Below, in pieces: positions 3,090 through 11,718 of a stretch of 64,000 bases of DNA. The position numbers were made by a program, and so were the translations under genes. The stretch comes from Moritella sp. PE36 (lineage in GTDB: Bacteria; Pseudomonadota; Gammaproteobacteria; Enterobacterales; Moritellaceae). Each line of letters opens with the position of its first letter. Position 1 is the first letter of the stretch. The stretch is taken from contig NZ_ABCQ01000002.1 in NCBI RefSeq assembly GCF_000170855.1, positions 1-64,000 of the forward strand, read 5' to 3'. The notes under the pieces were generated by a model. That model ran no database searches and was not told the DNA's origin. It saw only the letters and a program-made list of their open reading frames with translations.

Positions 3090-5942
3090 ATGTCTGACCC
3101 TTACCACATACTGATTAGAAAATTACGCCAGTCCATTGATGAAAAACGTATTATCACCGACCCGACGCTCACTTTCGCTTACGGAACGGATGCCAGTTTC
3201 TATCGCTTAGTGCCAAAGCTGATCTTACAACTGGCTAATTTAGACGAAGTGGTATTGGTCATTAAGACTTGCTATGACATGGCTATCCCCGTGACCTTCC
3301 GCGCAGCAGGCACTAGCTTATCAGGACAAGCCTTGTCAGACTCGGTACTTATCATGCTGACCTCTGATTGGCGCGAACATAAAGTCTTAGACAACGGCAA
3401 ACAGATCTGGCTACAACCGGGTATTATCGGTGCTGACGCCAATAAGATCTTAGCCCCTTATCAACGTAAGATAGGTCCAGATCCAGCCTCGATCAATACC
3501 TGTAAGATCGGTGGTATTGCCGCCAACAATTCCTCGGGAATGTGTTGTGGCACCGCGCAAAACAGTTATCAAACCTTAGCAGGCATGACAGTGGTACTCG
3601 CCGACGGTACCGTACTGAATACCTTAGACAGTTATAGTGTGGCGCAATTTAAAATCAGTCATCACGAGATGCTCGATGATCTGACTAACCTTGCGCAAGC
3701 GTGTAAAGACAATACCCCATTAGCCGATAAGATCCGCCACAAATACCGCCTTAAAAATACCACAGGCTACAGCCTTAATTCGTTAACCGATTACAGCGAC
3801 CCGATTGATGTGTTACAGCATTTGTTTATTGGTTCGGAAGGCACGTTGGGCTTCATCGCGGATGTCACTTACAATACGGTGATCGACCATAGTTTCAAAG
3901 CCACGGGTCTGTATTTATTTGCCGATATTGAGCAAACTTGTTTGGCCGTAAGCGCACTTGCTAATACCAGTGTTGCCGCTGTGGAGTTAATGGATAATCG
4001 CGCCTTAAATTCGGTGGCAGATAGACCGGGGATGCCAGCGTTTATCACTCAACTATCTCAAGGCAACTACCCCACTGAAAAAAATTCCGAAGCCGCGGCA
4101 TTATTAGTTGAGATCCACGCTGAAAATGAAACAGCGTTAAAGCAGCAAGTAGCCGAAATTAGTGCATTGATAAACCAGTTTACCCCAACTGACGCGATTG
4201 AATTTAGTACTGATACCAAGATCTACAACCAGTTATGGGCGATCCGTAAAGAGCTGTTCCCCGCAGTAGGCGCGGTGCGTGAAGTGGGTACCACAGTGAT
4301 CATCGAAGACGTGGCATTTCCTATCGAACAATTAGCCGCGGCAGTACGTGACTTAGAGATCTTGTTAAAAAAATACCATTATGATGAAGCGATCATCTTT
4401 GGCCATGCATTAGCGGGCAACTTACACTTTGTGTTTACCCAAGCATTCGAAACAGAAAAAGAAATCAATCGTTACAGTAGTTTCATGGACGATGTGGCGC
4501 AGTTAGTCGCGGTCGAGTATCAAGGTTCATTAAAAGCCGAACACGGTACTGGCCGTAACATGGCACCGTATGTCGAGCTGGAATGGGGTAGCGAAGGTTA
4601 TGCCTTGATGCAAGAAATCAAACGCATCTTTGATAAGACCGGTATTTTAAACCCCGGCGTGATCTTAAATGATAATAAAAATAGCCACATTACCGATTTA
4701 AAAATCATGCCAGCAGCAGACCCACTGATTGATAAATGTATCGAGTGTGGTTTTTGTGAACCGGTTTGCCCATCACGCGAATTATCGCTAACGCCCCGAC
4801 AACGTAATACCGTATACCGAGAGATCAGCCGCTTACAGCGTAGCCAAGAAGATCCCGCGCGTCTTGCCGAATTAGAGAAATCGTTTAAATATTTAGGCAT
4901 TGATACCTGCGCCGCAACAGGTTTATGTGCAGAGCGCTGCCCAGTGGATATTAATACCGGTGACCTCATTCGCAAGTTACGCCAACAACATTCACCCATC
5001 GCCAATGTTATAGCCCGTTGGAGTAGCGATCACTTTTCTGGGATCACAACGGCAACACAAGCAGGGTTAACTGTCGCGAACGGTATCCACAGTGTATTAG
5101 GCACTAAAGTGATGCGTACTGTGACCAAAGCCACCCGTAAACTCAGTGGCGGAGCTGTACCATTATGGACGCCGAGCATGCCGAAAGCAGCAGGTAAAGT
5201 GAAGCTATTAGCCAGTGATGGTCTGGCGCATAAAAAAGTCGTCTACTTCCCAAGTTGTGCCGCACGTAATATGGGCACTGCAAAGAATACCATGGATAAC
5301 CGCCCACTTGCTGAAGTAACACAAGCGGTATTACAAAAAGCCGGTATTGAAGTGGTTATGCCAAGCAAGTTATCAGAAAAATGCTGTGGTATGCCGTATA
5401 AGAGCAAAGGTTTTGTGGATACCGCCTTGAGTAAATCGGCGCAGTTAGAAGCGGCATTATGGGAAGCATCTGAGCAGGGTAAACTACCAGTATTAATGGA
5501 TACCAGCCCCTGCGCGAGTACCAGTATTGAGATGATGACCAAAGACATCGCGATTTATGAACCGTTCCGCTTTGTGGCTGAGTTCGTGATGCCGCATGTT
5601 GATATAACGCCACAAGCTGAGCCTGTGATGTTGCACATTACCTGTACCTCACGTAAGCAAGGTTTAGCAGATGTAATGGAACAAGTCAGTCGAGCCTGTG
5701 CGCAACAAGTGATTATTCCAGACGACATTCAATGCTGTGGTTTTGCCGGTGATAAAGGCTTTACCATCCCAGAATTAAACGCATCGGCATTGTCTCCATT
5801 AGCACGTCAAGTACCGAGCAATTGCAGTGAGGGTTATTCGAATAGCCGAACATGTGAGATTGGTTTATCAGAGCACAGTGGAATTGAATACCGCTCGATA
5901 TTGTATCTGGTAGATAAAGTGAGCGAAAAGCGTGTTAGCTAA
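3090..5942 (+). CDS. FAD- and Fe-S-containing D-lactate dehydrogenase (Dld-II type)
   Basis: 950 residues. N-terminal half: FAD-binding oxidase of the GlcD/vanillyl-alcohol-oxidase fold (VTFRAAGTSLSGQAL near residue 71, FIGSEGTLGFI near 248). Then two 4Fe-4S motifs (CIECGFCEPVCP near 550 and CAATGLCAERCP near 607) and a GlpC-like C-terminus with two CCG motifs (CCGMPYKSKG, CCGFAGDKG). This order and size match the respiratory D-lactate dehydrogenase Dld-II described in Shewanella, which passes electrons to quinone; other D-2-hydroxyacid dehydrogenases share the architecture, so the substrate is probable rather than certain. Good ribosome site (AGGAG) 7 bases before ATG. A second, diverged copy of its last 13 or so codons lies at 6571-6618. 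Confidence 0.85.
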   Translation: MSDPYHILIRKLRQSIDEKRIITDPTLTFAYGTDASFYRLVPKLILQLANLDEVVLVIKTCYDMAIPVTFRAAGTSLSGQALSDSVLIMLTSDWREHKVLDNGKQIWLQPGIIGADANKILAPYQRKIGPDPASINTCKIGGIAANNSSGMCCGTAQNSYQTLAGMTVVLADGTVLNTLDSYSVAQFKISHHEMLDDLTNLAQACKDNTPLADKIRHKYRLKNTTGYSLNSLTDYSDPIDVLQHLFIGSEGTLGFIADVTYNTVIDHSFKATGLYLFADIEQTCLAVSALANTSVAAVELMDNRALNSVADRPGMPAFITQLSQGNYPTEKNSEAAALLVEIHAENETALKQQVAEISALINQFTPTDAIEFSTDTKIYNQLWAIRKELFPAVGAVREVGTTVIIEDVAFPIEQLAAAVRDLEILLKKYHYDEAIIFGHALAGNLHFVFTQAFETEKEINRYSSFMDDVAQLVAVEYQGSLKAEHGTGRNMAPYVELEWGSEGYALMQEIKRIFDKTGILNPGVILNDNKNSHITDLKIMPAADPLIDKCIECGFCEPVCPSRELSLTPRQRNTVYREISRLQRSQEDPARLAELEKSFKYLGIDTCAATGLCAERCPVDINTGDLIRKLRQQHSPIANVIARWSSDHFSGITTATQAGLTVANGIHSVLGTKVMRTVTKATRKLSGGAVPLWTPSMPKAAGKVKLLASDGLAHKKVVYFPSCAARNMGTAKNTMDNRPLAEVTQAVLQKAGIEVVMPSKLSEKCCGMPYKSKGFVDTALSKSAQLEAALWEASEQGKLPVLMDTSPCASTSIEMMTKDIAIYEPFRFVAEFVMPHVDITPQAEPVMLHITCTSRKQGLADVMEQVSRACAQQVIIPDDIQCCGFAGDKGFTIPELNASALSPLARQVPSNCSEGYSNSRTCEIGLSEHSGIEYRSILYLVDKVSEKRVS

Positions 5943-5959
5943 AAGATAAGTAGTGATTA

Positions 5960-5983
5960 ATAAGCAGGTTGCGGCCTGCTTAT
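5960..5983 (+). terminator. Hairpin after D-lactate dehydrogenase
   Basis: Stem ATAAGCAGG/CCTGCTTAT with a 6-base loop, 18 bp after the dehydrogenase stop. The U-tract is weak (CAATTTG). The identical stem recurs at 6681-6707. Confidence 0.6.
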
Positions 5984-6083
5984 CAATTTGACTGAATGAG
6001 TATACATTTATACTTTTTTAACTCTTTTCTCTCTATGATAATTTTATTATTGATAACTTTCCTTTTCCTGACGTCGAAAAAAT

Positions 6084-6569
6084 ATGGTGCTAAAAATAAA
6101 AAAAATACTCTTAGTATCATCACTCTCCGCAGTGCTTATATCCAGCTCTATCGCTATATATGCTTTAGAATCTATGAATATTGAATACCTTATTTCATAT
6201 GCGGATAATAATGGTAATGGAACTACAGAAAATGATATTCAGCAATTGCAAAACAATACGGGTATTGAATTTATATTGAATGGTTCGAATAATTACAAGT
6301 ATCAGACGGCTGAGATATTTTTAGATAATGGGTTAGATATTAACAGTATAAATCATTCCAGTGACCGTAATATAAACGCGTTACATTCCGCGGTCTTACT
6401 TAAAAATACAGACAATGTCTTATTTTTACTGAAACATGGAATAGACATTAATGCTAAAACTAAAAATGGGTTAACCGCATTAGATTGGGCTATAAAAACA
6501 TATGAAGTTAATCCGACCAAAGAACTCAGTGAAATCATTCAGATATTAGAAACAGCAAGTAACTCGTAG
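6084..6569 (+). CDS. Small exported ankyrin-repeat protein
   Basis: 161 residues. N-terminus has a basic start and a hydrophobic segment (KKILLVSSLSAVLISSSIAIYA) that looks like a signal peptide or membrane anchor. The C-terminal half contains two ankyrin repeats: NALHSAVLLKNTDNVLFLLK with following HGIDINAKTKNG, then LTALDWAIKTYE. Function unknown; ankyrin repeats bind proteins, and periplasmic ankyrin proteins are sometimes partners or immunity-type factors. It is more AT-rich than the genes around it, lacks a clear ribosome site, and sits between two copies of the dehydrogenase 3' end, so it looks acquired. Confidence 0.7.
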   Translation: MVLKIKKILLVSSLSAVLISSSIAIYALESMNIEYLISYADNNGNGTTENDIQQLQNNTGIEFILNGSNNYKYQTAEIFLDNGLDINSINHSSDRNINALHSAVLLKNTDNVLFLLKHGIDINAKTKNGLTALDWAIKTYEVNPTKELSEIIQILETASNS

Positions 6570-6570
6570 T

Positions 6571-6618
6571 TCGCAATTGTATCCAGTAAGTAAAGTGAGC
6601 GAGAAGCCTGCAGTCTAG
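6571..6618 (+). pseudogene. Orphan copy of the D-lactate dehydrogenase C-terminal tail
   Basis: Two bases after the ankyrin stop, the frame from 6571 reads SQLYPVSKVSEKPAV followed by TAG. The intact dehydrogenase ends SILYLVDKVSEKRVS. Nucleotides match at roughly 28 of 34 positions, with a core of TAAAGTGAGCGA shared exactly. No upstream coding part of the dehydrogenase remains, so this is a detached 3' tail rather than a gene. It is followed by the same hairpin stem as the intact gene. Confidence 0.6.
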
Positions 6619-6680
6619 ATAACAGCAATAGATAGACAGTAAGTTATTAGAAATAGTTTGACCCACAGTTCTTAACAAAA

Positions 6681-6707
6681 AATAAGCAGGTCGATGGCCT
6701 GCTTATT
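6681..6707 (-). terminator. Hairpin between ankyrin and CoA-transferase genes
   Basis: Stem AATAAGCAGG/CCTGCTTATT with a 7-base loop. On the minus strand it is followed by a run of U (complement of ACAAAAAAT), so it fits as the terminator for the CoA-transferase gene ending at 6751. The stem is the same as the one at 5960-5983. Confidence 0.65.
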
Positions 6708-6728
6708 CATTTCGTAATACTAAATAAT
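6700..6728. repeat. 29-bp direct repeat, left copy (GNAT 3'-end remnant)
   Basis: These 29 bases match 11690-11718 with one difference. Read on the minus strand they encode YYLVLRNE plus a TAA stop; the right copy is the genuine end of the GNAT gene (DYLVLRNE, TAA). The two copies flank the CoA-transferase/AraC/flavoenzyme block. Confidence 0.65.
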
Positions 6729-6750
6729 AGTCGTTATATATCCAGTCAGA

Positions 6751-8061
6751 TTACTTGCTAAGGCCGACAAAAACCGCTTCTTCGCGCAGTGCGTCACGGA
6801 AATCAGGGTGAGCAATTTGAATTAGCGCTTCTACACGCTGAGGAACAGAAAGACCACGAAGATCAGCGCTGCCGTATTCTGTAGCAATAATCTGAACATC
6901 ATTACGTAGTGTTGTCACAGGGGTACCAGTAGGTAGAGCAACACGGATCGTTGACGTGAGGCCATCTTTACCTTTATGCAGAGAAGCAAGGCAAAGAATA
7001 CTGATCCCCCCTTTTGACATTTGTGCGCCACGGATAAAGTCGACTTGACCGCCAGAACCAGATATTTGATTAAAACCAACACCTTCAGAAGCAACTTGCC
7101 CGGTTAGATCAGCCATGATGCAAGTATTTATCGACACGAAGTTATCATTTTTGGCAATTTCATATGGGTTTACAACTGTCGATACGCAACCCATTTCTAT
7201 TTCTGGGTTGTTGTGAACATAATCTATCAGCTCTTGCGAACCTGCTGTAAACGCTGTAATGATTTTGTTGGGCTTGTAGTTTTTCTTGGCACCACTAACC
7301 GCGCCTGCTTTACACAGTTCCATCATTGACTCAGTAAACATTTCAGTGTGAATACCAAGGTCTTGATGATCTTTTAACGCCATGCCCATCGCATTTGAAA
7401 TCGTACCTATACCGATTTGGATCGTCATACCATTTTTAACATAAGGGATAACGTGTGAAGCGATCGTCTTTTCAAGCTCAGATGGTTCGCCAGCTTTAGG
7501 ACCCGCAACAGGGTGATGACCCTCTGTAATATGCGTCACTTGGTCAACGTGGATCAAGTTATCTTCACCAGCAATATAAGGCTGGTGTTTGTTGATAATG
7601 GCAATGATGGTATCAGCATGCTTCATTGCTTCGTTATTACCGACACCACCACAAGCGCCCATGCTCATGTAACCTTTTTCATTTGGCGGGGTCATCTCTA
7701 CAACCATAACATTGGGTTGAATTTGATTAAATAGCTGCGGGAAATGAGAGAAATGGAAGTTGATCGTTTCAACGTTACCCGTTTTTTGAATTTTACGCTC
7801 AAGTGGCCCCATAAACAGGCTTATATGTTTAAAGCTACTGCGAAACTCGGGTTTCAAAAAACCATATGGATGAGTGATAAGACCCGTATATAACTCACAG
7901 TTTTTAACTTCTTCGACACGTTTTTCTAATTCAAGTAAAAACAGAACCGGAGTAGATAGTAGACCACCAGCCCATACTTTATCTTCTGATTTTATTAGTT
8001 TGGTTGCATCCGTTAGAGAAACAGTTTTACTTTCATAAGTATTTTTCCAAGTTGTCATCAT
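6751..8061 (-). CDS. Acetyl-CoA hydrolase/CoA-transferase family protein
   Basis: 436 residues, full length for the 4-hydroxybutyrate/butyryl-/acetyl-CoA transferase family (AbfT/Cat1/Cat2 relatives). Visible are GIGTISNAMGMAL, the region with the expected catalytic glutamate (HTEMFTESMMELCKAG, near residue 240) and the glycine-rich GSGGQVDFIRGA motif. These cytoplasmic enzymes move CoA between acyl groups through a glutamyl-CoA intermediate. Strong ribosome site (GAGAGG) before the first of two ATGs. Divergent from an AraC regulator and two genes from a 2-enoate-reductase-like flavoenzyme, which suggests a shared acyl-CoA or enoate pathway; the actual substrate is unknown. Confidence 0.85.
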   Translation of the reverse strand: MMTTWKNTYESKTVSLTDATKLIKSEDKVWAGGLLSTPVLFLLELEKRVEEVKNCELYTGLITHPYGFLKPEFRSSFKHISLFMGPLERKIQKTGNVETINFHFSHFPQLFNQIQPNVMVVEMTPPNEKGYMSMGACGGVGNNEAMKHADTIIAIINKHQPYIAGEDNLIHVDQVTHITEGHHPVAGPKAGEPSELEKTIASHVIPYVKNGMTIQIGIGTISNAMGMALKDHQDLGIHTEMFTESMMELCKAGAVSGAKKNYKPNKIITAFTAGSQELIDYVHNNPEIEMGCVSTVVNPYEIAKNDNFVSINTCIMADLTGQVASEGVGFNQISGSGGQVDFIRGAQMSKGGISILCLASLHKGKDGLTSTIRVALPTGTPVTTLRNDVQIIATEYGSADLRGLSVPQRVEALIQIAHPDFRDALREEAVFVGLSK

Positions 8062-8213
8062 AACCTCTCAATAATAGAAAATAAGAACCTATCTGTATTT
8101 AAATTCACTCATAACGTTCCGTTGTTATCAGTTAGGATCTTTTTATTTGCTGCCGCGTAATCCTTGCTCTTTGGCTCTACTATATTGATAAAAGGTCTGA
8201 ATGATTTTGCATT

Positions 8214-8270
8214 TCAGGTCAAGCGTATGACAAAACGGGTCAAGTATTAAAATTGAGACTTGGGTCACAC
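8214..8270. promoter_or_regulatory. Direct repeats upstream of CoA-transferase / AraC gene
   Basis: The 300-bp divergent spacer (8062-8361) contains CAGGTCAAGC at 8215-8224 and CGGGTCAAGT at 8236-8245, 21 bp apart, plus a third GGTCAC at 8263. Direct repeats about two helical turns apart are typical binding sites for AraC-family proteins. Likely the operator of the regulator at 8362. I see no small gene in the rest of the spacer. Confidence 0.45.
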
Positions 8271-8361
8271 ATGTGCCGATGCAGAATAGGACGTCAACGG
8301 TTGTGAAGCGTGCATGATTATATTAGTCTGAATTACAGTTAATTATTCTTGTTTTTGAGTT

Positions 8362-9390
8362 ATGCCAATAAAAAATAAATCGATTAAGCCATTGTTATCG
8401 TATTACATTCATCCCGGTTGGATGAACCTATTAACAAAAGCCGCGGATAAAGTGAATATTGAAATTTCGTATGGTGCTTCAAATCGTATTATGGCGTCTG
8501 AATCGAGCAAGAATATGGATGTTCGCGAAATCAGAGATTTTCATTATCAACTCTATCTCAATTCGGGTGATCCAACATTTACATTAGATGCAGCCAAACA
8601 AGTAACGCCGCTTACATTCGATAGTTACTCCCTCTGTTTATGGACATGCCCCGATCTTTTAACCTTGCTAAAAGATGCGGCAGCGTTTTGTATTACGCTA
8701 GGTTCGCCTATTCGACTCAGTTTTCATTTGACGCCGCAAGGGGATGCCGAAATTTGGTTATTTAATCAAGAACCGTTAAACAAAGAATCTCACATCACCC
8801 ATTTAGGGGTCACGTTGTATCTGGCAACACTTGTTCAGATTATTCATGAAACCACGGGGCATCAGCTCGATGAGTTGGCGGTGAAACTCATTACTTGGCC
8901 GTATGATGATAATCGCTTAGCTGAATTTGAGAAAATAATGCGCTGTCAAATTTCCACAGGCTCGCCCGTGAGAAAGATCCACATAATGCGTAAATACCTT
9001 CACAGACCATTGGTCACACAAAATCCTGAAATATATGCCAGCGCTCGTTCCCTATTACTTAATAAAGCCGCTCAACTTGAAGCCGATGATATTTTATTAC
9101 AGGTATATAACACGCTCGATAAGCAAGCTAATTTAGATAATTTATCTGCTGAAAGCATCGCTTCACAGATGCTTTTCAGTGTGCGAACTCTTAATCGTCG
9201 ATTAGCTGAAGTAGGAATGTCTTATCGGAGCGTAGTTGAGAAATATAAACTTGAAAAAGCACTGCAACTACTCAATCAACCGCATAGTAATATTACCGAA
9301 ATTGCCTTTCATTTAGGATTTTCAGATTTAAGTACATTTTCTCGCGCTTTTAAACGCTGGACTGGCTGCAGCCCGACAAAATCAACATAA
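8362..9390 (+). CDS. AraC-family transcriptional regulator (OruR/ArgR-like, Arabinose_bd-type N-terminus)
   Basis: 342 residues. N-terminal two thirds resemble the ligand-binding domain of the OruR-like AraC group; the last 100 residues hold the double HTH (ESIASQMLFSVRTLNRRLAE, then ITEIAFHLGFSDLSTFSRAF with the closing KRWTGCSPTKS). Such regulators usually control an adjacent catabolic gene. Placed between the divergent CoA-transferase and the downstream flavoenzyme, it is the natural local regulator of both. The ribosome site is poor. Confidence 0.88.
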   Translation: MPIKNKSIKPLLSYYIHPGWMNLLTKAADKVNIEISYGASNRIMASESSKNMDVREIRDFHYQLYLNSGDPTFTLDAAKQVTPLTFDSYSLCLWTCPDLLTLLKDAAAFCITLGSPIRLSFHLTPQGDAEIWLFNQEPLNKESHITHLGVTLYLATLVQIIHETTGHQLDELAVKLITWPYDDNRLAEFEKIMRCQISTGSPVRKIHIMRKYLHRPLVTQNPEIYASARSLLLNKAAQLEADDILLQVYNTLDKQANLDNLSAESIASQMLFSVRTLNRRLAEVGMSYRSVVEKYKLEKALQLLNQPHSNITEIAFHLGFSDLSTFSRAFKRWTGCSPTKST

Positions 9391-9565
9391 CGGAATGGAG
9401 CAAAAGACTCGCCAAGGATGATCCAAATCAACTTAGTTACTAATGACCTAAAGTGTCAAATCTATGGCTTGGAATGCAAAGTAATATGCGTAATGAATTG
9501 TTCTAATTAACCTCAGTTAGTGTAACAAAAACAATATTGTTACCATCAGTTACTGGAGTGAAACA

Positions 9566-11596
9566 ATGTTAAAACAATCGCATAAAGTGTTATTTGAATC
9601 TATGTATATTGGTAAGCTCAAACTAAAAAACCGTTATTCTATGGCCCCTATGGGTACCCTTGGATGTGTGGATGCCGATGGCGCGTATAACCAACGTGGT
9701 ATTGAGTATTACACCGCCAGGGCTAAAGGTGGTGTAGGCTTGATCATCACTGGCGTTAACATGGTTGAGAATACGCTTGAACCCTTCCCAATGCCATCGT
9801 TACCTTGCCCGACTAATCATCCCATTTCGTACATTCGTAATGGTAAAGAGCTGACAGAACGAGTCCATGCTTATGGGACAAAAATATTTGCTCAATTAAC
9901 AGCTGGATGGGGACGTTCTTGTGTGCCAGGTTTTACGCCAGCAGACAAATCCATTGCACCATCTGAAGCGCCTAACCGTTTCGACCCTACTATCATTCAC
10001 CGTGAACTCACCACGGAAGAAGTTAAATACTTTATTCATAAATTCATCGAAAGTGCTGTTATTGCCCAAAAATCTGGTTTTGATGGCGTCGAGATCCATG
10101 CGGTACATGAAGGCTACCTACTTGATCAGTTCACCATGGAGTTTTTCAATAAGCGTACCGATCAGTATGGCGGTAGCTTCGAAAATCGTTACCGTTTTGC
10201 GGTAGAAATAGTTAAAGGTATCAAGGCTGTTTGTGGTAAAGATTACCCCGTTAGCTTACGTTACTCAGTAAAAAGTAACATGAAATCCTTTGGTGAGGGC
10301 ATTCTACCGGGTGAAGATGCGGTTGAAGTGGGTCGTGATATGGAAGAGGGCTTACAAGCAGCTAAGTACCTGCAAGATGCAGGCTTCGATGCCCTTAACG
10401 TCGACGCAGGTTCCTACGACTCATGGTATTGGAACCATCCGCCTAACTACTTCAAACCTGGTATGTACAAACCCTACTGTAAAGCGGTATCTGAAGTCGT
10501 TGATATTCCAGTACTGATGTCTGGTCGTATGGAGAACCCAGACATGGCGAGTCGTGCTGTCATTGAACATGCCGCTGATGGTATTTCGATGGGTCGCCCA
10601 CTACTTGCTGATCCTGATGTGGTTAACAAGATCCGCCGAGGTCGTTTTGAAGAAGTCCGTCCATGTCTTTCCTGTCACCTTGGCTGCCTCGGCCGTATGG
10701 CTGAAATAGGCAACATCTCATGTGCAGTCAATCCGCGCTGTGGTCGAGAAGAAGAATATAAACTAACACCAACGCATAAAGCGAAAAAAGTGGTGGTGAT
10801 TGGAGGTGGCGTGGCCGGTATGGAAGCGGCACGTATTGCATCTGAACGCGGACATAACGTTGTGCTGTTTGAAAAATCAGATAACCTAGGCGGTAATGTT
10901 ATCCCTGGTTCACAAGCGCCATTCAAGCACGATGATAAGCAACTTATCACATGGTTTGAAGGTGAACTGACTCGTAAAAATGTTGACGTACGTATGAATA
11001 CAACGGCAACGAAAGCAACTATTGAAGCTGAACAACCAGACAGTGTGATCTTTGCAACAGGCTCTCGTCCAACGACTCCAACTTGGTTAGCCGGACAAGA
11101 CAAAGCACATGTTGCCATTGCAGAAGATGTACTGATGAACCCAGACCTAATCACTGACGAAAGTGTAGTGGTGATTGGCGGTGGTTTAGTTGGTTCCGAA
11201 ACGGCTCTGTGGCTTGCACAAAAAGGCAAAAAAGCAATCTTGGTTGAAGGTGCTGACGATATTATCGGTGGCCCACACGGTACTTGTTTTGCTAACTACC
11301 AGATGCTTAAAGAACTATTGGTTCAAGAAAACGTTGAAATTAAAACCTCAACCTTCTTAAAATCAATCACTGATAATGGCATTGAAATTTGCCCTGCGAA
11401 TGACCAAACTGCAGTGAGCGAAATCAGCGTCGATCACGTTATCCTTGCGATGGGTTATAAAGCAGAGCATAGCTTGTTTGATGAGTTAGCAAATGAACTG
11501 GATGTTGAAGATGTGTTTAACATTGGTGATAGCCAAGCAGCCCGAACCATTATGGCGAGTATCTGGGAAGGTTATGAAGTCGCTCGCTCATTGTAA
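9566..11596 (+). CDS. 2-enoate / 2,4-dienoyl-CoA reductase-like NADH:flavin oxidoreductase
   Basis: 676 residues with the three-part FadH layout: an Old-Yellow-Enzyme TIM barrel (residues about 1-350, with HEGYLLDQF and RTDQYGGSFENRYRF), a 4Fe-4S motif (CLSCHLGC ... C, starting near residue 367), then FAD and NAD(P) Rossmann folds (VVVIGGGVAGMEAA near 409, VVVIGGGLVGSETAL near 534). Relatives include E. coli FadH, clostridial 2-enoate reductase and bile-acid BaiCD/BaiH; I cannot choose among substrates. Strong GGAG ribosome site. With the nearby CoA-transferase this suggests reduction of an unsaturated acid or acyl-CoA. Confidence 0.88.
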   Translation: MLKQSHKVLFESMYIGKLKLKNRYSMAPMGTLGCVDADGAYNQRGIEYYTARAKGGVGLIITGVNMVENTLEPFPMPSLPCPTNHPISYIRNGKELTERVHAYGTKIFAQLTAGWGRSCVPGFTPADKSIAPSEAPNRFDPTIIHRELTTEEVKYFIHKFIESAVIAQKSGFDGVEIHAVHEGYLLDQFTMEFFNKRTDQYGGSFENRYRFAVEIVKGIKAVCGKDYPVSLRYSVKSNMKSFGEGILPGEDAVEVGRDMEEGLQAAKYLQDAGFDALNVDAGSYDSWYWNHPPNYFKPGMYKPYCKAVSEVVDIPVLMSGRMENPDMASRAVIEHAADGISMGRPLLADPDVVNKIRRGRFEEVRPCLSCHLGCLGRMAEIGNISCAVNPRCGREEEYKLTPTHKAKKVVVIGGGVAGMEAARIASERGHNVVLFEKSDNLGGNVIPGSQAPFKHDDKQLITWFEGELTRKNVDVRMNTTATKATIEAEQPDSVIFATGSRPTTPTWLAGQDKAHVAIAEDVLMNPDLITDESVVVIGGGLVGSETALWLAQKGKKAILVEGADDIIGGPHGTCFANYQMLKELLVQENVEIKTSTFLKSITDNGIEICPANDQTAVSEISVDHVILAMGYKAEHSLFDELANELDVEDVFNIGDSQAARTIMASIWEGYEVARSL

Positions 11597-11666
11597 AATT
11601 GATGCGAACTTGTCGCTATAACCTGCCGCTTAAAACGCCATATTAGTAAACGATAAATAAACACGA

Positions 11667-11694
11667 AAGCACAACAAGTTTCCTTGCTGTGCTT
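11667..11694. terminator. Convergent hairpin between flavoenzyme and GNAT gene
   Basis: Stem AAGCACAACAAG/CTTGCTGTGCTT (11 of 12 paired, one mismatch) with a 4-base loop. It overlaps the GNAT stop codon (minus strand) and lies 70 bp after the flavoenzyme stop. U-tracts are weak on both sides. Confidence 0.5.
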
Positions 11695-11718
11695 ATTCAT
11701 TTCGTAACACTAAATAAT
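11690..11718. repeat. 29-bp direct repeat, right copy (within GNAT 3' end)
   Basis: Matches 6700-6728 at 28 of 29 bases. This copy contains the last eight codons and stop of the intact GNAT gene. Confidence 0.65.

What the first reader, a model, noticed from the sequence alone, without database searches (positions are those of the whole stretch)
5900..6618. Ankyrin gene sits between two copies of the D-lactate dehydrogenase C-terminal tail
The dehydrogenase ends SILYLVDKVSEKRVS-stop at 5942. Right after the ankyrin stop, 6571-6618 reads SQLYPVSKVSEKPAV-stop, clearly the same tail in diverged form. Both tails are followed by a hairpin with the same stem. So a roughly 0.65-kb piece carrying an AT-rich exported ankyrin gene seems to have arrived together with a replacement 3' end for the dehydrogenase, like elements that restore the gene they enter. 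It lies just beside the other insertion, suggesting a hotspot.
Basis: partly seen in the sequence, partly recalled or inferred. Interest (0 to 1): 0.72.

Follow-up and report, generated by a model that had tools for sequence, protein, structure and literature searches.

The report
Orphan immunity-type gene inside duplicated gene-end
A small exported ankyrin gene in a Moritella bacterium is the left-over second half of a widespread two-gene unit that looks like a toxin-and-antidote pair, and it sits between two copies of the end of a neighbouring enzyme gene because the unit was inserted together with a duplicate of the local DNA, a footprint that recurs around the same unit in unrelated bacteria.

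Summary
The last 48 bp of the D-lactate dehydrogenase (LDH) gene recur, decayed, 1 bp after the ankyrin stop (35/48 identical; 0 of 3000 shuffles reach that), and both copies are followed by the same terminator stem. Of ten congeners only Moritella sp. JT01 has the same junction. Seven have a single tail followed directly by a GNAT gene; two carry other cargo there, so the gap is a hotspot. The ankyrin is not recent: its synonymous divergence from JT01 (0.48) equals that of LDH (0.47), with dN/dS 0.19. It is the orphaned second gene of a conserved pair: ORF1 (about 157 aa, no known family) plus a membrane-anchored or exported ankyrin. ORF1 is deleted in the window and frameshifted in JT01. The pair occurs at many unrelated loci. 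hcp lies directly upstream in two independent lineages and most carriers have a T6SS, so I read it as a T6SS-type effector-immunity pair and the window gene as orphan immunity (toxicity untested). Host DNA (55 to about 780 bp) is directly duplicated around the pair at several unrelated loci (6/40 against 5/227 control sites), once as the last 42 bp of the upstream gene, as here. No recombinase is present; one-sided homologous plus illegitimate recombination fits best.

The parts
3090..5942 (+). D-lactate dehydrogenase (FAD/FeS, 950 aa), host gene; its 3' end is intact
   Evidence: 92-96% identical orthologues at one place in all 10 congeners
5895..5983 (+). first (working) copy of the duplicated stretch: last 48 bp of LDH, spacer, terminator stem 5960-5983
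5984..6063 (+). leader of the inserted unit; 78% identical to the JT01 leader (the 112-bp match also takes in the terminator upstream)
6064..6093 (+). remnant of ORF1: last 9 codons FPDVEKIWC plus stop, overlapping the ankyrin start; the rest is deleted relative to JT01
   Evidence: family C-terminus ..VWG/..IW
6084..6569 (+). orphan ankyrin gene, 161 aa, hydrophobic N-terminal anchor/signal, Ank_2/4/5 hits; lacks a ~19-aa inner stretch present in JT01
6571..6618 (+). second, decayed copy of the LDH tail (35/48)
6619..6707 (+). second copy of spacer and terminator (stem 6681-6707)
6703..6728 (-). remnant of the 3' end of the GNAT gene, left border of the neighbouring CoA-transferase block; repeated at 11690-11718

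Best explanation
The ankyrin gene is an orphan immunity-type gene left from an inserted two-gene unit. (1) Shown: the unit is ORF1 (about 157 aa, cytosolic, no known family) followed within a few bases by an ankyrin protein with an N-terminal membrane anchor or signal. (2) Shown: in the window and in Moritella sp. JT01 the unit lies between LDH and GNAT with the last 48 bp of LDH plus spacer and terminator on both sides: the left copy completes LDH, the right one is an abandoned end; equal synonymous divergence points to one event in a common ancestor. (3) Shown: ORF1 was lost independently (deletion in the window, frameshift in JT01), while the ankyrin stayed under purifying selection. (4) Inferred: ORF1 is an antibacterial effector delivered by the type VI secretion system through Hcp, and the ankyrin neutralises it in the periplasm or at the inner membrane; kept alone, it protects against neighbours still armed with that effector. 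(5) Inferred: insertion used no recombinase of its own; most likely one end of incoming DNA paired with the homologous LDH end and the other end joined by illegitimate recombination just upstream of the resident LDH end, which leaves both neighbours working and a direct duplication as footprint.
For: Same junction (ankyrin stop, then TTCG of the LDH tail) in the window and JT01. Seven congeners have LDH-terminator-GNAT with one tail. dS of ankyrin 0.476 against LDH 0.468, ankyrin dN/dS 0.19. Ankyrin directly behind ORF1 in nearly all gammaproteobacterial loci (36 of the 37 loci L094-L130; the other ends at a contig edge). Hydrophobic N-terminus in 32 of 33 ankyrins. hcp (PF05638) directly upstream of ORF1 in L098, L105, L106, L108 and L136, and an hcp remnant in L102. 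6 of 7 ORF1-bearing genomes have TssK against 173 of 395 in the order; the exception has a shortened ORF1. Arrays of extra ankyrins in L098, L102, L103, L109. Host DNA repeated around the pair at 6 of 40 sites against 5 of 227 control sites, Fisher p = 0.002, including the last 42 bp of a response-regulator gene in L104, and PHP-gene copies in G175. Ankyrin immunity has a solved precedent, Tli for Tle6 (PMC11470151); HFIR was proposed for effector-immunity modules (PMC5361080).
Against: No experiment shows ORF1 is toxic or secreted. ORF1 has no family or fold match. hcp neighbours come from only two independent lineages (a cluster of related MAGs and Aquisalimonas). ORF1 homologues of Alphaproteobacteria and Acidobacteria have no ankyrin. 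The T6SS association is weak (p = 0.03). Most pair loci show no flanking repeat. The control sites do not tell whether any insertion of this size would show such repeats; the neighbouring CoA-transferase block, which has no ORF1, also has a 29-bp one. Patchy presence needs three or four losses if the insert is ancestral.
Confidence: 0.6

Rival explanations
1. A tandem (merodiploid) duplication of the LDH end and terminator arose first, or the unit integrated as a circle by a single crossover in the LDH end, giving the flanking repeats by ordinary homologous recombination.
For: Direct repeats of very variable length with an intact gene on one side are what single-crossover integration gives; L101 has a 376-bp repeat with sharp, well preserved ends; arrays exist.
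Against: A circle must already carry the local host sequence, so it needs an earlier joining event; no plasmid or phage record carries ORF1.
Confidence: 0.25
2. Remnant of a site-specific integrative element that uses the LDH 3' end as attachment site and restores it.
For: Gene-end duplication with an intact left gene is the classic picture; L104 shows the same with another gene.
Against: No recombinase in the window insert or in JT01; duplicated stretch varies 55-780 bp and includes promoter regions as well as gene ends; targets are unrelated genes.
Confidence: 0.08
3. The pair is not an effector-immunity pair but a housekeeping or stress pair (ORF1 an enzyme or scaffold, ankyrin its membrane partner), and the orphan is simply decaying.
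For: Ankyrin-less ORF1 homologues in other phyla; the window ankyrin lacks an inner stretch of about 19 aa.
Against: hcp adjacency, ankyrin arrays, scattered strain-specific sites, retention of the second gene after loss of the first, dN/dS 0.19.
Confidence: 0.25
4. The tail resemblance is chance.
For: 48 bp is short.
Against: 0 of 3000 shuffles; repeated together with the terminator in JT01.
Confidence: 0.01

Closest known systems
Orphan immunity genes and sequential effector displacement in Vibrio cholerae T6SS clusters (Kirchberger 2017, PMC5361080)
   Same: immunity gene kept after its effector is gone; module proposed to be joined with one homologous anchor and one illegitimate end; pieces of a gene end displaced downstream
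   Different: here outside any T6SS cluster, behind metabolic genes, and the duplicated piece belongs to an unrelated host gene
Tle6-Tli (ankyrin immunity lipoprotein) of Enterobacter cloacae (PMC11470151)
   Same: effector gene followed by exported ankyrin-repeat protein
   Different: ORF1 is a 157-aa protein with no lipase domain or detectable similarity; the window ankyrin is anchored, not a clear lipoprotein
Integrative elements that restore the 3' end of the target gene (from general knowledge)
   Same: intact gene on one side, displaced gene end on the other
   Different: no integrase, no constant core length, unrelated targets

Membership tests
T6SS effector-immunity pair | two adjacent co-oriented genes, effector then immunity | tested here: met
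   nearly all gammaproteobacterial loci have ORF1 then ankyrin, same strand
T6SS effector-immunity pair | genetic link to Hcp/VgrG/PAAR | tested here: inconclusive
   hcp next to ORF1 in 5 loci plus one remnant, two independent lineages only
T6SS effector-immunity pair | host genome has a T6SS | tested here: met
   6 of 7 genomes; the window's own genome has two TssK and two Hcp genes
T6SS effector-immunity pair | effector toxic, immunity protective | not testable with these tools
   needs expression tests
Orphan immunity gene | immunity homologue without its effector, retained by selection | tested here: met
   ORF1 deleted in window, frameshifted in JT01; ankyrin dN/dS 0.19; holds only if the pair is an effector-immunity pair
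Site-specific integrative element restoring a gene end | integrase gene and constant core repeat | tested here: not met
   none in the insert; repeat length varies 55-780 bp
Homology-facilitated illegitimate recombination | one homologous border, one non-homologous border | tested here: inconclusive
   left border is in LDH sequence, right border abuts the ankyrin stop; no donor genome to show the crossover

The most novel reading that the evidence does not exclude
ORF1-ankyrin is an undescribed T6SS effector-immunity family that spreads through Gammaproteobacteria as a recombinase-less cassette, and its landings leave long direct duplications of the target that keep both neighbouring genes whole; such footprints would let one find orphan immunity genes and their landing sites from sequence alone.
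Probability: 0.35. Interest if true: 0.68.

Novelty: new variant of a known kind. Interest (0 to 1): 0.52.

Why it matters
If right, it adds an uncharacterised effector-immunity family with no Pfam model, gives a datable case in which an immunity gene outlived its effector twice, and offers a sequence footprint (host DNA duplicated around the pair) for how such modules get into chromosomes without a transposase or integrase, a step that Kirchberger et al. could only propose.

Tried and rejected
A genome-wide terminator repeat as recombination site: only local matches. Donor-type replacement tract in LDH: sliding identity shows a general mosaic, no clean breakpoint near the 3' end. Inferring which tail is ancestral from stop codon (TAA/TAG) and spacer length: signals conflict. 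Plasmid or phage carriage: no ORF1 match. PADLOC, Pfam, NCBIfam, PHROGs, PDB sequence and Foldseek for ORF1: nothing beyond isolated single-member chance hits. Empty-site test for the G175 case: the PHP gene is itself absent in the other six genomes of that genus. The AAA ATPase insert of G003 at the same gap has no flanking repeat. An empty-site search around L104 was not possible.

Full report
WHAT WAS CHECKED. The window's LDH gene (3090-5942) ends SILYLVDKVSEKRVS-stop, and 6571-6618 reads SQLYPVSKVSEKPAV-stop. At DNA level 35 of 48 bases agree without gaps; 3000 first-order shuffles of the downstream region never exceed 30, and the next best place in 64 kb scores 27. Both copies are followed by a stem AATAAGCAGG...CCTGCTTAT (5960-5983 and 6681-6707). 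That stem is not a dispersed repeat in the genome.

RELATIVES. All ten congeners held have LDH at one place. G005 is Moritella sp. JT01 (contig of the same length and content), so the genus is Moritella. Seven congeners (G001, G002, G004, G006, G008, G009, G010) have LDH, one tail, a hairpin, then a convergent GNAT gene. JT01 has the ankyrin at the same junction, with a second tail decayed by different small deletions. G007 has the CoA-transferase/AraC/oxidoreductase block that also follows in the window; G003 has a two-gene AAA-ATPase insert. The gap is therefore a hotspot with three kinds of cargo in 11 genomes.

AGE. The two ankyrin carriers lie in two well supported clades among non-carriers. 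Synonymous divergence between them is 0.476 for the ankyrin (161 codons) and 0.468 for LDH; other LDH pairs among the six closest genomes span 0.28-0.67. The simplest reading is one insertion in their common ancestor and several losses, easily made by recombination between the two tails; transfer of the whole locus at about that age is not excluded. Ankyrin dN/dS is 0.19, so the gene has been under selection for most of that time, although the window copy lacks a stretch of about 19 residues.

WHAT THE ANKYRIN IS. In JT01 a further gene, frameshifted, lies between terminator and ankyrin. Its intact homologue forms a pair with an ankyrin paralogue elsewhere in the window's own genome (G000:C126, beside serA). 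In the window only its last codons FPDVEKIWC-stop remain (6064-6093), overlapping the ankyrin start. A search of 395 genomes of the order found ORF1 in 7, and a scan of 84,980 species genomes found 48 loci. In the loci L094-L130, nearly all gammaproteobacterial, the ankyrin follows directly in 36 of 37; the other is cut by a contig end. 32 of 33 ankyrins tested have a hydrophobic N-terminus, and the genes mostly touch or overlap. Most of the remaining loci, mainly Alphaproteobacteria and Acidobacteria, have ORF1 without an adjacent ankyrin.

LINK TO TYPE VI SECRETION. hcp lies directly upstream of ORF1 in L098, L105, L106 (broken), L108 and L136, and an hcp remnant in L102; these represent two independent lineages. 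6 of 7 ORF1-bearing genomes in the order have TssK against 173 of 395 overall (p = 0.03); the exception has a shortened ORF1. Some loci hold strings of extra ankyrins, as known for orphan immunity arrays. Ankyrin immunity is documented for Tle6 (PMC11470151). The reading as effector and immunity is an inference; ORF1 has no family, PDB or fold match.

HOW IT GOT THERE. Around the pair, host DNA is directly repeated in L100 (mutS end and beyond, about 780 bp), L101 (nfeD end plus purU start, about 380 bp), L104 (last 42 bp of a response-regulator gene plus 12 bp, 78%), L112 (73 bp upstream of mfd, 90%), L113, L126 (about 750 bp), G175 (589 bp of a PHP gene), and in the two Moritella loci. With 2-kb flanks and the pair array L103 left out this is 6 of 40 sites against 5 of 227 control sites in the same contigs (p = 0.002); the window, JT01 and G175 are not among the positives of that count. 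The second copy begins 1 bp (window), about 9 bp (L112), 37 bp (L104) and 53 bp (L100) after the ankyrin stop. No recombinase is encoded in the window or JT01 insert, and neither plasmid nor phage records hold ORF1. Variable length and unrelated targets speak against an integrase. One homologous anchor plus one illegitimate joint (homology-facilitated illegitimate recombination, HFIR), as proposed for V. cholerae modules (PMC5361080), or single-crossover integration fit better. Insertions of this kind leave both neighbours whole, so selection would favour them in compact genomes. The neighbouring CoA-transferase block shows a 29-bp repeat of the GNAT end, so the process is probably not special to this family.

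VERDICT.

Noticed in passing
window 6703-11718: CoA-transferase / AraC / NADH:flavin oxidoreductase block inserted between the LDH terminator and GNAT, flanked by a 29-bp direct repeat of the GNAT 3' end; shared with G007 only.
   Followed up: partly
L039 (G003), about 70-1620 bp after the LDH stop: Two-gene insert (137 aa plus AAA ATPase 383 aa, looks like a defence pair) directly behind LDH, replacing the terminator, without flanking repeats.
   Followed up: partly
L093:2914-3925: Intact ORF1-ankyrin pair beside serA in the window's own genome; its ORF1 is about 49% identical to the JT01 one.
   Followed up: yes
L038 (JT01), contig 261450-261560: GNAT is reduced to its 3' end and joined to a CatB-type acetyltransferase that has an inner deletion.
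   Followed up: no
L048:6342-6635: Decayed solo ankyrin of the same family between a GGDEF gene and a Nudix gene in G009.
   Followed up: partly
L131-L138: Mostly stand-alone ORF1 homologues without ankyrin in Alphaproteobacteria and Acidobacteria, shorter at the C-terminus; function unknown.
   Followed up: no
L098, L099, L102, L105, L108, L109: One Ectothiorhodospiraceae MAG (NORP100) holds six ORF1 loci, several with hcp or extra ankyrins; another MAG (D96SM.bin.23, L103) has an array.
   Followed up: partly
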